Positions 10,921 through 25,495 of a DNA stretch of 64,000 bases are shown here, piece by piece. The stretch's first letter is position 1. Every line of letters starts with the position of its first letter. The notes beneath the pieces were generated by a model that was not told the origin of the DNA, searched no databases, and saw only the letters and a program-made list of their open reading frames with translations. A program made the translations under genes and the position numbers. This DNA comes from Candidatus Poribacteria bacterium (lineage in GTDB: Bacteria; Poribacteria; WGA-4E; PCPOR2b). The stretch covers positions 1 to 64,000 of the forward strand of contig JAJECO010000033.1 in assembly GCA_022822005.1 (NCBI GenBank), in the 5' to 3' direction.

Positions 10921-11880
10921 ATGGATACCATTCAAGGCAAGGTTATTCGAGCCAGAACCAGCTTCTATGATGTTCAAGATGGTGACATGGTACTTCGGTG
11001 CCAATTACGTGGACGTGTCAAGCGTGCGCAGAGATCTGCGGAAGGGAGGCAAATCTACGCGGATCCGGTTGCTGTTGGTGATGAGGTCAGCGTGATGCCT
11101 CGCGACAATGAGGAGGGGGTCATTGAGGAGATTTTGCCGCGTCGAACCAAATTCTCGCGCCGATACCCCGGAAAGCGTGATCCGATTGAACAGATTGTTG
11201 TCGCGAATGCAGATCAAGTGGTCACGGTCCTCTCAACTCGCCAGCCTGACCTTAACCTACGCTTCTTGGATCGATTCCTGATTTTAGCGGAAGTTGGGGA
11301 GATGGATGCAGTGGTCTGCCTGAATAAAATCGACCTGATTGATGCAGCAGAGCGGCGAAAACTGGGCTCAGTTTTGAGTGCCTACGAACGACTTGGTTAT
11401 CCAGTGCTTTTTACCAGCATGAATCAGCCGCAGACCATCGAACGCCTTCGAGACCTGCTGCGGGATAAATTCAGCGTCATTGTCGGTGCATCAGGTGTTG
11501 GCAAGTCAAGCCTGCTGAATGCGGTTCAACCGGGACTAGCCTTACGTGTAGGTGAAGTGGGGGCGAAAACAGGGAAAGGCAGGCATACAACGACGTTGGT
11601 TGAGCTTTTCTGTTTAGAAGTCGGGGGTGAGGTAGCGGATACCCCAGGCATTCGAGAGGTTGGTTTGTGGGGCGTTGATAAGGAAAATCTTGACCTCTAT
11701 TTTCCGGAGATGGAAAGTTATCTCGGGAAGTGCAAATACGCAGATTGTGTCCACCTATCTGAACCCAGTTGTGCGGTTACGGACGCCGTTAACATAGGCA
11801 AAATTAGCGAGGTCCGATATGCAAGCTATGTGGCGTTGAAAAGCGATGAAAACATAGAAGATTTGAACTCGATACCATAA
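10921..11880 (+). CDS. rsgA: Ribosome biogenesis GTPase RsgA
   Basis: 319 residues from ATG 10921; in-frame GTGs at 10858 and 10909 are alternatives, and the nearest strong site (AAGGAGG at 10885) fits none of them well. An N-terminal OB fold is followed by a circularly permuted GTPase: the G4 motif N-K-I-D (135-138) precedes G1 G-A-S-G-V-G-K-S (189-196) and G3 D-T-P-G (240-243). The C-terminal zinc site is C271, C276, H278 and C284. The protein assists late 30S subunit maturation. It follows the sugar genes on the same strand and converges with pth. Confidence 0.92.
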   Translation: MDTIQGKVIRARTSFYDVQDGDMVLRCQLRGRVKRAQRSAEGRQIYADPVAVGDEVSVMPRDNEEGVIEEILPRRTKFSRRYPGKRDPIEQIVVANADQVVTVLSTRQPDLNLRFLDRFLILAEVGEMDAVVCLNKIDLIDAAERRKLGSVLSAYERLGYPVLFTSMNQPQTIERLRDLLRDKFSVIVGASGVGKSSLLNAVQPGLALRVGEVGAKTGKGRHTTTLVELFCLEVGGEVADTPGIREVGLWGVDKENLDLYFPEMESYLGKCKYADCVHLSEPSCAVTDAVNIGKISEVRYASYVALKSDENIEDLNSIP

Positions 11881-11913
11881 GCGGTTCTTCCGTCCACTTG
11901 ACACTAAAGCACA

Positions 11914-12504
11914 TCACGGATTATCTCCCACAGGGACCCGTCCATTAAATCGGTTCATTGCTGTCTGAACGCCCTCCGTAACAAATGTCTCAATGGCGTC
12001 GGCTGCACACGGGATTGTCCCATCAATGTATTCTCTTTCTGCATCAGAAAATTCGTTCAGCACGTGATCCATCCAATCTCCCTCCACCTGCCCAATTCCT
12101 ACCCGCAAGCGCGGAAAATCCTGTGTATCGAGATGACGGATAATTGATTTCATGCCGTTGTGTCCGCCGTCGCTGCCTCCCTTTCGCATCCGCAACACAC
12201 CAAGGTTCAAGTTCAGATCATCATAAACGACGCATAAATCCTGCGGAGAGATGTCAAATTTCTTGACCATCAGGCTGACTGCCTGCCCACTATTGTTCAT
12301 GTAGGTCATCGGTTTGGCAAAGATCACCTCCAAGTCGTGCCATTCTGTTCGCGCGATAAGTGACTTACACATTGGCTGTAACCGGGGCAGTTGCGATCTC
12401 AGGAGGAGTTCGTTAACAACCCAAAATCCGAGGTTATGCTTGGTTTGTTCGTATTTGGGACCCGGGTTCCCGAGTCCAACGATCAGTTTTGTTGGCGTGG
12501 ACAT
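11914..12504 (-). CDS. pth: Peptidyl-tRNA hydrolase
   Basis: 196 residues, normal length. It frees tRNA from peptidyl-tRNA dropped by ribosomes. The hallmark G-L-G-N-P-G-P-K-Y-E-Q-T-K-H-N-L-G-F carries catalytic H23. K-P-M-T-Y-M-N-N-S-G and the D-D-L-N-L loop are present, as is the G-G-x-x-G-H-N-G-M-K-S segment. It is the last gene of the ispE / tRNA-Gln / rplY / pth neighbourhood that is common in bacteria, here separated from rplY by the amidase and GerMN genes. Confidence 0.95.
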   Translation of the reverse strand: MSTPTKLIVGLGNPGPKYEQTKHNLGFWVVNELLLRSQLPRLQPMCKSLIARTEWHDLEVIFAKPMTYMNNSGQAVSLMVKKFDISPQDLCVVYDDLNLNLGVLRMRKGGSDGGHNGMKSIIRHLDTQDFPRLRVGIGQVEGDWMDHVLNEFSDAEREYIDGTIPCAADAIETFVTEGVQTAMNRFNGRVPVGDNP

Positions 12505-21831: not shown

Positions 21832-22686
21832 TTATTGCTTTGGCGAAATAAATCCTTTAATTTTTTCTATCACGATATCTGGGACATCTTGATTTTCCCA
21901 GAATTCAGCATGAGTTATGCCCATTGATTCCAACCATGTTCGCCAGTATTTTTCAAGAATAGGTCGGTCTAGCATATGTCGAAGTTTGACTTCAACCATT
22001 AAAAATTTCACATTGTAACTGCTGAAATTTTTGCTGATTTCCAATAACCCGTGGTCCTTGCTGTCAAATTTCTTTTTCCAGTTCAGGTCATCACGAAACT
22101 TAGCGACTTGCATGAATGTTGTTTTATTGCCTTGCTTGGGACGATTCTTTTGAATATCAGCATCAAAATCAAGGTAACCATCCGAGACGCAAATAATATA
22201 ATTAAGTGCCTCCTGCTGTAAATAGGCTTCTGCGCTACCCCGAAACCAATCCCAAATATCCGACCCTGTATATTCTTCAACAGATGGATACAAATCACGA
22301 ATTTTCTTAAGCAATTCTTTTTTCTTGTTTTTGAACTGTGGGGCACCACCACCTGTATCCTTTGTAATATTCAACGGGATTGGTGCTGCGCCCGTTTGCT
22401 CTGGAACAACGAAAGCTAAACGATGTGGATAACCTATGTATAACTCTGGGCGAACAAGTTTCTCCTCAAAAAAATCAATGATGCCTTCCGCGATTGCGAT
22501 GTCTGTTTCAGCCTGACCGGGATTCTTATCTGCAGAGACCCGATCGGAGGTATCAAGGATAACGATGATATTTATAGGTTGGGCCGGGGATGGGGTTGGC
22601 GGTGGATCCGTACATCCTATGTAACCTGCTATCAATAAAAGAAAAAAAACGGCAAAGACAGTTCCAGAAACCTTTATTTTCTCCAT
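21832..22686 (-). CDS. VWA-like lipoprotein (nuclease-cassette gene 3)
   Basis: 284 residues with AAGGAG site. The signal ends at A-G-Y-I-G-C. After a proline-rich spacer, I-V-I-L-D-T-S-D-R-V-S resembles the first MIDAS segment of von Willebrand A domains (D-x-S present, third position not serine). Y-I-I-C-V-S-D-G-Y-L-D-F at about 170 matches the later V-x-D-G strand. The C-terminal ~90 residues are charged and unassigned. It follows the membrane nuclease gene by 74 bp on the same strand and shares its low G+C (about 38% in a sampled line). Role unknown; an envelope sensor or partner of the nuclease is inferred. Confidence 0.6.
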   Translation of the reverse strand: MEKIKVSGTVFAVFFLLLIAGYIGCTDPPPTPSPAQPINIIVILDTSDRVSADKNPGQAETDIAIAEGIIDFFEEKLVRPELYIGYPHRLAFVVPEQTGAAPIPLNITKDTGGGAPQFKNKKKELLKKIRDLYPSVEEYTGSDIWDWFRGSAEAYLQQEALNYIICVSDGYLDFDADIQKNRPKQGNKTTFMQVAKFRDDLNWKKKFDSKDHGLLEISKNFSSYNVKFLMVEVKLRHMLDRPILEKYWRTWLESMGITHAEFWENQDVPDIVIEKIKGFISPKQ

Positions 22687-22760
22687 ATAAAACTCCTTAA
22701 ATTCCAGTAATTTTAACCCTGACGAACGGGTTTGAAACTACTCACCACAGTGGATTTGTG

Positions 22761-24935
22761 TCAAGATTGGGAGGAGTAATCTAGCGAGTTTTCATAATAT
22801 TGGTTGAGCGTCTCGTATGCAACTTGTCTAATTCTGTTGATTTGATCGGATACGTCAGTTGTTCCATCTGCACTATGGGCAACAAACCTGCACCATCCAT
22901 TCAAAAATTGGTTGACCTGCGATTCCATTTTATTACCGTTGACGATTCGTTTGTTTCGACGCGCTGACAATTCCTCAATTTTTTCTTGGCTTTGGCCTAT
23001 CTCCCGTTGAATGTTCTTAACTTTCTCATTGAGTTGGTTAATCTTGTCTTGTAAGTTTTCCATTTCAACTTTTAAGACAGCAATTTGAGCCTCAATTGGA
23101 GTTTTCGCCTCTTTTATCCGATTTTCCTGTTGTTGTCTTGATAGCCCGTCAATTTTCCGTTGGGTGCTTTCAACCTTTTCATTGAGTTGGTTAATCTTAT
23201 CTTGTAAGTTTTCCATTTTAGCTTTTAAGGTGGCGACTCTCTTCTCAGTTGAACTTCTCTCGGATCTTATTTGTATCTCTAACTGTTTAGATTCGTCCCG
23301 GCGCGGTCTCACGCCTTTCCACAGTTCAATAGTAGCCGGGTAGAGAATGCTTACAAATAGTGCAACTACAAAGCCACAAAAAATAACAGTCCACATATTG
23401 AGATCGCTTGTTCTGAATGTCCATTTCTCTGTTTCTGGAATCAACCCCGCAAGTTTTTTAACTTCATGTATCTTTTGCGAGATATGAATCGCAAGTATAA
23501 AGTCAAACACAAGAGTCACTAGAAGAACGAGCGCAATAACGCTCCAAAGCCACCATCGCTTTGATTGGTTCCAAAAATCATGAAAAGCATGTGTTATAAT
23601 TACAACGGCCATGAAAATAGAAGGGAATAGAATAACAAATGGATTTCCCGGCCTTTGGAAAGCTTCAAATAAAGCAGTCGGATTAACAATATCAAGAGCA
23701 TTGAGTATGTCTTGCGATTTCTCTTTGAGCGATGCTACGTCTAAAAAGAAAGCCTTATCAACAACAGAAGCATAAAAGATAAAGAGGTAAGCTACCAAAG
23801 GAATAAGGAAAAACACAGCGATAATTCCTGTGATAAGCTGGCTATAAGAGAATCGTTGTTTGGTGGTAACTTCCGCAGATATTGGATTTAACTCTGCCTG
23901 CGTTGGAGATTCTAATTCCACTTCGAGTCCTACTAGTTCCTCTTTCTTCTGGGCGAATTCTTGAGACTTCTGCTCGATTTCTCGTTCCAATTCATTTTGG
24001 TTTTCACGTAGCTGGCTGACTTCTTCTACTAGTTGTTGTTTAGCGACATCTTGGTTGGACTCTTCCAGAATTGGAGAGCTTAGCTCTATTTCCGTTAGTG
24101 CTTGCAATTGGACCTCAAGTTCCGCCAGTTTCTCTTTCCTTGGAGCGAGTTCTTGGGTGCTTTGTTCGATTTTCTGTTCGTAATCTTGCTTCTGTTCTTC
24201 CAGTCCATTTTTCTCATTCACTAACCAGTTAACTTCTGCTTGCAGTTGTTCTCGACTGGATTTTATCTCTAGCTCCTCATTAGAAATTATATGTTTAACA
24301 TGCTGTGGCACACACTCAGCGATTCCTTGGTGGTTTGCCGCCCAATAAAAACCGTTTTGTTCACTGTAATAAGGGTTGCCATTCAAACTTGGGTCGAAAT
24401 CCGCATTATTATCGTTTTGCAAAGGTTGGTTTCCTCCTGTATAGACGATATTAGGGTGATTGGGACCAACTGCGGGCGGACGAATTGGTTCAGGAGCAGG
24501 CGATTTGACAGGCGACAGTCTGTCGGGGCGTGGACGAAAAATCCCTCTCGCAAAATTGTCCAACGTCTTAATTATACCTTTTTTAAGAACCTGTGCCTCA
24601 AATTGAGGGCGATCGATCTGCTTAAATTGGTTTTGCCCTAGATTCTCATAGAATGTCCAATAGGCGGGATCTGTTTCATTAGCAAATACACCTAGCGGTG
24701 TATCAGTTGCACAGAGATAGCCTTTCAGTTGGTCGGGACCACTGCCTTCGTAGCCAATTTTTTTACACTCTATGATAGCAGCTACCTTTTTATCGCTATC
24801 AAGCAGCACAACATCTGCTCGTCCCTTGTAAACGCCCATCTGAACTGGATATTCTGTTCTTGTAGATAACCGCTCAAATTTGGGGGTAGAGAAGTAATCG
24901 ACGACTTTCTCTACCACTATATCTTCGGGCCCCAT
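22761..24935 (-). CDS. PD-(D/E)XK nuclease fused to coiled coils and four membrane helices
   Basis: 724 residues. The N-terminus (about 25-110) resembles the type I restriction HsdR N-terminal domain: D41 (G-R-A-D-V-V), E56-x-K58 (I-I-E-C-K-K) and Q69-L-K-G-Y73, the QxxxY motif. A proline-rich linker (140-190) leads to a long coiled coil (222-345). Four hydrophobic helices lie at 367-391, 432-451, 461-485 and 512-537. A second coiled coil (548-690) contains a duplicated N-L-Q-D-K-I-N-Q-L-N-E-K-V unit. The gene is AT-rich (33-38% G+C in sampled lines). I know no named family with this layout. A membrane-anchored nuclease for defence is inferred from domains only. Confidence 0.7.
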   Translation of the reverse strand: MGPEDIVVEKVVDYFSTPKFERLSTRTEYPVQMGVYKGRADVVLLDSDKKVAAIIECKKIGYEGSGPDQLKGYLCATDTPLGVFANETDPAYWTFYENLGQNQFKQIDRPQFEAQVLKKGIIKTLDNFARGIFRPRPDRLSPVKSPAPEPIRPPAVGPNHPNIVYTGGNQPLQNDNNADFDPSLNGNPYYSEQNGFYWAANHQGIAECVPQHVKHIISNEELEIKSSREQLQAEVNWLVNEKNGLEEQKQDYEQKIEQSTQELAPRKEKLAELEVQLQALTEIELSSPILEESNQDVAKQQLVEEVSQLRENQNELEREIEQKSQEFAQKKEELVGLEVELESPTQAELNPISAEVTTKQRFSYSQLITGIIAVFFLIPLVAYLFIFYASVVDKAFFLDVASLKEKSQDILNALDIVNPTALFEAFQRPGNPFVILFPSIFMAVVIITHAFHDFWNQSKRWWLWSVIALVLLVTLVFDFILAIHISQKIHEVKKLAGLIPETEKWTFRTSDLNMWTVIFCGFVVALFVSILYPATIELWKGVRPRRDESKQLEIQIRSERSSTEKRVATLKAKMENLQDKINQLNEKVESTQRKIDGLSRQQQENRIKEAKTPIEAQIAVLKVEMENLQDKINQLNEKVKNIQREIGQSQEKIEELSARRNKRIVNGNKMESQVNQFLNGWCRFVAHSADGTTDVSDQINRIRQVAYETLNQYYENSLDYSSQS

Positions 24936-24961
24936 GTTAGGTTTCTGTGACTCCTTCTAAA

Positions 24962-25495
24962 TTAATGATGCTCTGAACACCCTTTAATTGCCTCTGCATC
25001 GTTTTGAGGGAGGGCCCTGCCATTTTCGTACATCCAGTTCAGATTATCTTGGGCTGCGGAATAGCCACCTTCAGCGGCTTTGCAATACCACCTAACTGCT
25101 TCCGTATCACTTTGGGAAACACCCCTGCCATGCTGATACATCCATCCAAGATTATCTTGGGCTTTTGCGAGATTACCGTCCTCAGCAGCTATGCGATACC
25201 ATTGGACTGCCATTACATCATCTTGAGAAACGCCTCTGCCGTGCTGATACATCCAGCCGAGATTATCCTGAGCTATTGCATAATCTTGTCCGGCAGCTTT
25301 TCGGTACCATATGATTGCCTCCGTGTCGTCCTGAGGAACTCCCTTCCCATTTTGATACATCCAGCCAAGGTCATTCTGAGCAGTAGGATCTCCACCCTCG
25401 GCAAGTTGTCGCAGTTGCCTTAATGTTTCGGTTTTCGGTGTTTGCCCTTCGGCTTCAAGCCGTTGATGTGCTGATGATGTCGCATCATCTGGCAT
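24962..25495 (-). CDS. Sel1-repeat protein (nuclease-cassette gene 1)
   Basis: 177 residues, no signal peptide, with AAGGA site. At least four Sel1-like repeats of about 36 residues are visible, each with A-Q-D-N-L-G-W-M-Y-Q-x-G-x-G-V followed by D-x-x-A-x-x-W-Y. These helical repeats bind protein partners. It starts 15 bp after the thiG stop and ends 26 bp before the membrane nuclease gene, so the three cassette genes could be read from the thi operon. A cytoplasmic adaptor is plausible. It is related to the larger Sel1 protein at 54219-55739. Confidence 0.8.
   Translation of the reverse strand: MPDDATSSAHQRLEAEGQTPKTETLRQLRQLAEGGDPTAQNDLGWMYQNGKGVPQDDTEAIIWYRKAAGQDYAIAQDNLGWMYQHGRGVSQDDVMAVQWYRIAAEDGNLAKAQDNLGWMYQHGRGVSQSDTEAVRWYCKAAEGGYSAAQDNLNWMYENGRALPQNDAEAIKGCSEHH

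What the first reader, a model, noticed from the sequence alone, without database searches (positions are those of the whole stretch)
21832..25495. Three-gene cassette: Sel1 protein, membrane-anchored PD-(D/E)XK nuclease, VWA-like lipoprotein
Seen: the central protein has D41, E56-x-K58 and the QxxxY motif of HsdR-type nuclease domains, then coiled coil, four membrane helices and a second coiled coil. All three genes are on one strand with gaps of 26 and 74 bp, and start 15 bp after thiG. Sampled lines of the nuclease and VWA genes are 33-38% G+C against about 60% in thiG. Inference: an acquired module behind the thi operon, with a nuclease held at the membrane, a repeat adaptor inside and a sensor outside. 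I know no named defence system with this layout.
Basis: partly seen in the sequence, partly recalled or inferred. Interest (0 to 1): 0.75.

Follow-up and report, generated by a model that had tools for sequence, protein, structure and literature searches.

The report
Membrane scaffold with swappable nuclease heads
In sponge-associated bacteria (Poribacteria), a membrane protein that is always paired with an exported partner carries, in different genomes, one of two unrelated DNA-cutting domains; its only known distant relatives sit in CRISPR-type immune loci, which suggests an undescribed anti-virus device built on an exchangeable nuclease.

Summary
The three ORFs, catalytic-type residues and spacings are real, but "three-gene cassette" is wrong. 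Sel1 belongs to the resident thiG neighbourhood (it follows thiG in four genus-mates without the other two genes) and is at none of the 20 relative loci examined. The real unit is two genes: a four-TM, double-coiled-coil protein plus an exported VWA-fold protein, adjacent wherever both are on one contig. All close relatives are Candidatus Poribacteria.

The N-terminal nuclease is a swappable head: PD-(D/E)XK (HSDR_N_2) here and in four relatives, GIY-YIG (T5orf172) in the others, fused or as the gene just upstream. GIY-YIG-headed proteins nest inside the PD-(D/E)XK clade (one-clade test rejected, p-AU 1.7e-72), at a shared chromosomal site.

The two non-poribacterial relatives found lack the head and lie in CRISPR-type loci; in Runella, scaffold and VWA are one protein inside a type III-B locus.

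Best reading: an envelope-associated anti-phage/anti-DNA-entry nuclease that works like SNIPE or Zorya but belongs to neither. Defence is inferred, not tested. A published CRISPR-neighbour survey mentions vWA-plus-transmembrane modules, so the scaffold may already be partly catalogued.

The parts
22761..24935 (-). 724-aa membrane protein with PD-(D/E)XK head (scaffold gene)
   Evidence: ORF; relatives in Poribacteria; AF2 model
24576..24935 (-). Head, residues 1-120: HSDR_N_2 / PD-(D/E)XK with D41, E56-x-K58, Q69-xxx-Y73
   Evidence: Pfam above cut-off; conserved in relatives; Foldseek probability 1.00 to restriction-endonuclease-like folds 3ijm and 3ot2, E 0.008-0.04. Cleavage not tested
24285..24383 (-). 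Conserved short segment (residues 185-217, N-G-x-P-Y-Y-S-...-G-F-...-G-I-...) at the start of the scaffold, after the variable linker
   Evidence: Near-invariant in all 19 bodies; resembling GF..AGR..G in the distant relatives
23910..24263 (-). First coiled coil, residues 225-342
   Evidence: Long helices in AF2 model
23310..23846 (-). Four-TM block, residues 364-542
   Evidence: Hydropathy, helices in AF2 model, conserved to G091 and Runella
22953..23297 (-). Second coiled coil, residues 547-661
   Evidence: AF2 model
22782..22937 (-). C-terminal helical tail, residues 667-718, with conserved F-x-x-G-W-C-R motif
   Evidence: Invariant columns
21832..22686 (-). 284-aa exported VWA-fold protein, obligate partner; D-x-S-x-R in place of DxSxS
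   Evidence: AF2 pLDDT 82, Foldseek to VWA domains, invariant residues, adjacency
24962..25495 (-). Sel1-repeat gene: resident neighbour, NOT part of the module
   Evidence: Present after thiG in G001-G004 without the module; absent at 20 other module loci

Best explanation
The unit is an envelope-associated nuclease module. The 4-TM protein holds a DNA-cutting head at the cytoplasmic face of the inner membrane; the VWA protein lies on the outer side of the same membrane and is its obligate partner. Invading DNA, most likely phage DNA during injection, or the envelope disturbance that goes with it, is perceived at the membrane, and the head then cuts the DNA near its entry point. Membrane tethering keeps the nuclease off the chromosome. 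The head is a replaceable effector: PD-(D/E)XK or GIY-YIG on the same scaffold. Shown: adjacency, scaffold-VWA fusion in Runella, head exchange, fold classes, conserved catalytic-type residues, purifying selection, CRISPR context of the two distant relatives. Inferred: topology, DNA cleavage, trigger, defence.
For: Scaffold and VWA adjacent wherever both are on one contig; fused in one Runella protein inside a type III-B CRISPR locus, and next to CARF and Cas6-like genes in G091. Two unrelated nuclease folds exchanged on one scaffold, which fits a cutting function better than any other shared property. GIY-YIG heads match the SNIPE nuclease region (PD-Lambda-1 model, 1e-7) and a PADLOC candidate, PDC-S57, 1.8e-33. 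Patchy, acquired, AT-rich insert with empty sites in genus-mates. TmtA-like genes beside two loci. dN/dS 0.13-0.46. SNIPE precedent: PMC13190303.
Against: No activity data. Only two relatives outside Poribacteria, one on a 4.35-kb contig whose Cas6-like match is weak. In Poribacteria most neighbours are ordinary genes, not a defence island, and the two TmtA-flanked loci share a neighbour family, so may not be independent. The distant relatives have no head, so the nuclease is not essential to the scaffold. The head domain is promiscuous in Poribacteria. Topology rests on TM counts.
Confidence: 0.55

Rival explanations
1. Zorya-like altruistic version: the membrane scaffold senses envelope disturbance and unleashes the nuclease on host and phage DNA alike, so the infected cell dies or stalls, rather than cutting only the entering DNA.
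For: Same general layout as Zorya: membrane complex with a long cytoplasmic helical tail, an outward domain and an exchangeable DNA-damaging effector (PMC11890865). Headless relatives in CRISPR loci fit a sensor that can serve other effectors.
Against: No MotA/ExbB or OmpA-type domain. A head fused to the scaffold would be expected to stay at the membrane.
Confidence: 0.17
2. DNA-uptake processing: the head acts on DNA taken up by competence or as food, not on phages.
For: The same head family is fused in Poribacteria to DprA (L128, L131) and to a TM protein with a ComEA-like helix-hairpin-helix (L127).
Against: Those are different proteins; scaffold and VWA show no competence linkage at the loci examined, and CRISPR context of the relatives points to immunity.
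Confidence: 0.12
3. The heads are DNA-binding or structural only; the module tethers the chromosome or organises the membrane.
For: SMC-like coiled coils; cleavage is untested; the VWA metal site is non-canonical.
Against: Catalytic-type residues conserved in both unrelated head families; patchy distribution and head exchange do not fit a housekeeping role.
Confidence: 0.09
4. A selfish nuclease gene of the homing type carried with accessory genes.
For: GIY-YIG domains are common in homing endonucleases (own knowledge); the module is acquired and found at several sites.
Against: A conserved 4-TM scaffold and an exported VWA partner under purifying selection are not features of homing genes; nothing found in the viral and phage collections searched.
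Confidence: 0.05

Closest known systems
SNIPE (PD-lambda-1), PMC13190303
   Same: Membrane-held nuclease; relatives of this window's protein carry a GIY-YIG head that matches the SNIPE nuclease region
   Different: No DUF4041 found; head at the N-terminus, four TM helices instead of one near the N-terminus, obligate VWA partner, and in this window a PD-(D/E)XK head instead of GIY-YIG
Zorya (ZorAB with exchangeable effectors), PMC11890865
   Same: Membrane complex with long cytoplasmic helical part, outward domain, modular DNA-damaging effectors
   Different: No MotA/ExbB or OmpA-like domain found; VWA instead of the peptidoglycan-binding ZorB domain; nuclease fused to or encoded beside the scaffold
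PADLOC candidate PDC-S57
   Same: Stand-alone GIY-YIG head gene matches at E 1.8e-33
   Different: The model covers one protein of 212-245 aa; the scaffold and VWA genes hit no PADLOC model beyond coiled coil
vWA/transmembrane modules near CRISPR loci in the FLSHclust survey, PMC10910872
   Same: vWA-related systems with transmembrane proteins listed beside CRISPR loci; the Runella and G091 relatives may be of this sort
   Different: Identity with this family could not be checked (supplements not readable); no nuclease-headed form is mentioned in the passages read
Type I restriction HsdR
   Same: HSDR_N_2 domain
   Different: No helicase motor in the protein; used as a small head on a membrane protein

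Membership tests
PD-(D/E)XK nuclease superfamily (HSDR_N_2) | Fold and D...E-x-K residues | tested here: met
PD-(D/E)XK nuclease superfamily (HSDR_N_2) | DNA cleavage | not testable with these tools
   Needs biochemistry
SNIPE | DUF4041 domain | tested here: not met
   Not among Pfam hits of the window protein (25 of 27 shown, E up to 1) or of relatives (E up to 0.05)
SNIPE | C-terminal GIY-YIG nuclease | tested here: not met
   Window has an N-terminal PD-(D/E)XK head; relatives have an N-terminal or separate GIY-YIG head
SNIPE | Membrane anchoring | tested here: inconclusive
   Four TM helices predicted; localisation not tested
Zorya | ZorA MotA/ExbB-like domain and ZorB OmpA-like domain | tested here: not met
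   No such Pfam hit shown; only a noise-level ExbB match in Foldseek (E 1.5)
VWA domain proteins | VWA (Rossmann-like) fold | tested here: met
VWA domain proteins | Canonical MIDAS DxSxS | tested here: not met
   D-x-S-x-R invariant, also in the G091 and Runella relatives
Lipoproteins | Lipobox Cys | tested here: inconclusive
   A Cys follows the signal segment in the window and some relatives, not in others; Runella has a hydrophobic segment instead
Type III CRISPR accessory genes | Location in a type III cas locus | tested here: inconclusive
   Met for Runella; supportive for G091; the window's immediate neighbours are thi and leu genes, and the poribacterial loci were not systematically scanned for cas genes

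The most novel reading that the evidence does not exclude
A general envelope-sensing scaffold (4-TM coiled-coil protein plus exported VWA) that evolution plugs into different immune effectors: PD-(D/E)XK or GIY-YIG nuclease in Poribacteria, and the type III CRISPR apparatus in other phyla. That would be a new kind of defence platform linking events at the cell envelope to nucleic-acid cutting.
Probability: 0.38. Interest if true: 0.88.

Novelty: new variant of a known kind. Interest (0 to 1): 0.72.

Why it matters
SNIPE showed in 2026 that a membrane-bound nuclease can tell phage DNA from self by place rather than sequence. A scaffold without detectable relation to SNIPE that accepts either of two unrelated nuclease folds, with an obligate exported partner, would suggest that this strategy arose more than once and that the membrane part, not the nuclease, carries the discrimination. 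Head exchange on one scaffold at one chromosomal site is a natural experiment, and the Runella protein WP_164490312.1, annotated hypothetical in a type III-B CRISPR locus, gains a testable role.

Tried and rejected
Sel1 as adaptor: rejected. Coiled-coil hits to LmuB, JetC, DndD, SMC, Rad50 and haemagglutinin stalks: set aside as coiled-coil composition. Phage or viral origin: no hit in the viral contigs or phage records searched. DUF4407 relation (E 0.011 in one member, coiled-coil part): not pursued. ExbB-like fold: noise level. Wider search for CRISPR-linked relatives: nothing in the single genome of G141's phylum or 82 genomes of G128's phylum; among 373 genomes around G137 only G091 and G010, both already known; among 386 around G091 only G091, G010 and a weak partial match in G235 that was not examined. 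Plasmids: only Runella. Literature searches returned no paper that I could recognise as describing this pair.

Full report
What is there. The 724-aa protein has HSDR_N_2 at residues 7-107 above the Pfam cut-off, with D41, E56-x-K58 and Q69-xxx-Y73, which are also conserved in the heads of relatives. AF2 gives a confident head, a disordered linker (about 128-193), a long coiled coil, four membrane helices, a second long coiled coil and a small helical tail (hydropathy). Foldseek places the head with restriction-endonuclease-like folds 3ijm and 3ot2 (probability 1.00, E only 0.008-0.04). The 284-aa protein hits no family, but its model matches VWA domains. Its metal site is not canonical: D-x-S-x-R, invariant, instead of DxSxS.

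The cassette is two genes, not three. The Sel1 gene follows thiG at about 78% identity in G002, G003 and G004, and as a short, more diverged copy in G001, where the nuclease and VWA genes are absent from that site. DNA alignment shows homology stopping at the leuC end on one side and in Sel1 on the other (in G002 leuC was not found in the stretch fetched). No Sel1 homologue appears at the 20 relative loci.

Distribution. VWA relatives occur in 24 of 73 genomes sampled around the window (two of these matches are fragments). A scan of the named genome collection found 22 loci, all Candidatus Poribacteria. The 4-TM body and the VWA gene are adjacent wherever both are on one contig; in G028 they lie at the ends of two contigs. 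Some copies are broken: an integrase gene lies within the body of G061 contig 65, and G028, G044 and G055 have split bodies.

The head is exchangeable. Bodies carry either the HSDR_N_2 head (window, L031, L032, L037, L038) or a GIY-YIG head of the T5orf172/MUG113 type (PF10544, E 5.7e-15 to 1e-17). The latter is fused in L033-L036, L048 and L050, and is a separate gene of 125-186 aa directly upstream in eleven loci, with 4- to 14-bp overlaps in seven of them. On the body tree, GIY-YIG-headed L033, L035 and L036 fall inside the HSDR-headed clade; at least two changes are needed, and forcing the HSDR-headed bodies together is rejected (p-AU 1.7e-72; the group was named after a first tree had been seen). 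L032 and L036 are 62% identical from residue 130 of L032 on, with no match before it, and their loci share flanking gene families, so the same site holds different heads. The VWA tree broadly follows the body tree. dN/dS is 0.13-0.46 for body, VWA and separate head.

Relatives beyond Poribacteria. Two were found. In G091 the VWA gene and a headless body overlap by 14 bp and follow a Cas6-like gene (weak, E 1.5e-4, below the curated cut-off) and a CARF gene (TIGR02619, 1.7e-22; PADLOC CARF_RelE 1.7e-53). In the Runella sp. SP2 plasmid pSP2_2 one 704-aa protein, WP_164490312.1, annotated hypothetical, contains body and VWA joined by a further hydrophobic segment, in a type III-B locus with Cas6, Cmr1, Cas10/Cmr2, Cmr3-6, Csx2, Cas1 and Cas2. 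The Runella-to-window body and Runella-to-G091 VWA matches are about 26% identical (blastp 3e-20 and 4e-19 against a small hand-picked set; the database-wide tblastn value is 2e-13). The fusion supports partnership and, by TM count, an outside VWA.

Mechanism. The most economical reading is a DNA-cutting head held at the inner face of the membrane, coupled to an exported partner, and acting on entering DNA. SNIPE provides the precedent: a membrane-bound GIY-YIG nuclease that cleaves phage DNA during injection, with the membrane anchor preventing self-damage (PMC13190303). A GIY-YIG head here matches the SNIPE nuclease region (PD-Lambda-1 model, 1e-7) and a PADLOC candidate (PDC-S57, 1.8e-33). 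Zorya offers the alternative of an envelope complex that unleashes a DNA-damaging effector (PMC11890865). Membership of either fails on missing defining domains. TmtA-like genes (Tiamat, by my own knowledge of the name) lie beside the module in G042 and G050, which hold one and two strong TmtA matches; these two loci share a neighbour gene family, so they may not be independent, and other loci have ordinary or transposon-type neighbours.

Limits. Function is untested. The outside sample is two. The FLSHclust survey mentions vWA-related systems with transmembrane proteins near CRISPR loci (PMC10910872); this pair may be among them, and supplements could not be read. The HSDR head is a promiscuous domain in Poribacteria, also fused to DprA, a ComEA-like protein, OB folds, TPRs and another VWA, which weakens any argument from the head alone; the argument rests on the conserved scaffold-VWA pair, the exchange of heads and the CRISPR context of the distant relatives.

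Noticed in passing
L128:265-1602 (+), L131:634-2037 (+): DprA (DNA_processg_A by Pfam in L128) with the same HSDR_N_2 head fused at the C-terminus: a nuclease-type domain on a protein of incoming single-stranded DNA.
   Followed up: partly
L127:694-1977 (-): HSDR_N_2 head, one TM helix, coiled coil and a ComEA-like helix-hairpin-helix in one protein.
   Followed up: partly
L130:1744-2985 (-); L125:879-2480 (-); L126:1567-3171 (+); L129:890-2380 (-): Same head fused to a different VWA domain, to OB folds with coiled coil, and to TPR repeats: the head is a promiscuous module in Poribacteria.
   Followed up: partly
L031:7089-8246 and 11495-11956: In G002 the module is flanked by a DUF559/MTES_1575-type nuclease with TPR and, on both sides, two similar small proteins without Pfam hit that look PUA/EVE-like by eye.
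   Followed up: partly
L035:2771-6526 (+), L046:2531-6235 (-): TmtA-like (sacsin/HSP90-type ATPase) genes next to the module in two genomes.
   Followed up: partly
L038:7227-7658 (+), L047:9462-9788 (-): Short, apparently truncated genes for another lipoprotein-like protein (IYFDA-x-x-SMQGFV) upstream of two modules, possibly remnants of a second VWA-type system.
   Followed up: no
L111:2011-4209 (-): In G003 the thiG-leuC interval holds a 732-aa protein with Sel1-like repeats instead of the module, so this interval looks like a variable site.
   Followed up: no
L041:10870-13434 (-), L038:2852-5416 (+): PNKP-type RNA-repair ligase genes (854 aa; Pfam for L041) within a few kb of the module in G045 and G055.
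   Followed up: no
L115:8875-9717 (+): Integrase gene (rve, HTH_21) inside the scaffold gene of G061 contig 65: a broken copy beside an intact VWA gene.
   Followed up: partly
L124:13591-15705 (+): Runella sp. SP2 plasmid III-B locus: WP_164490312.1, annotated hypothetical, is a scaffold-VWA fusion.
   Followed up: yes
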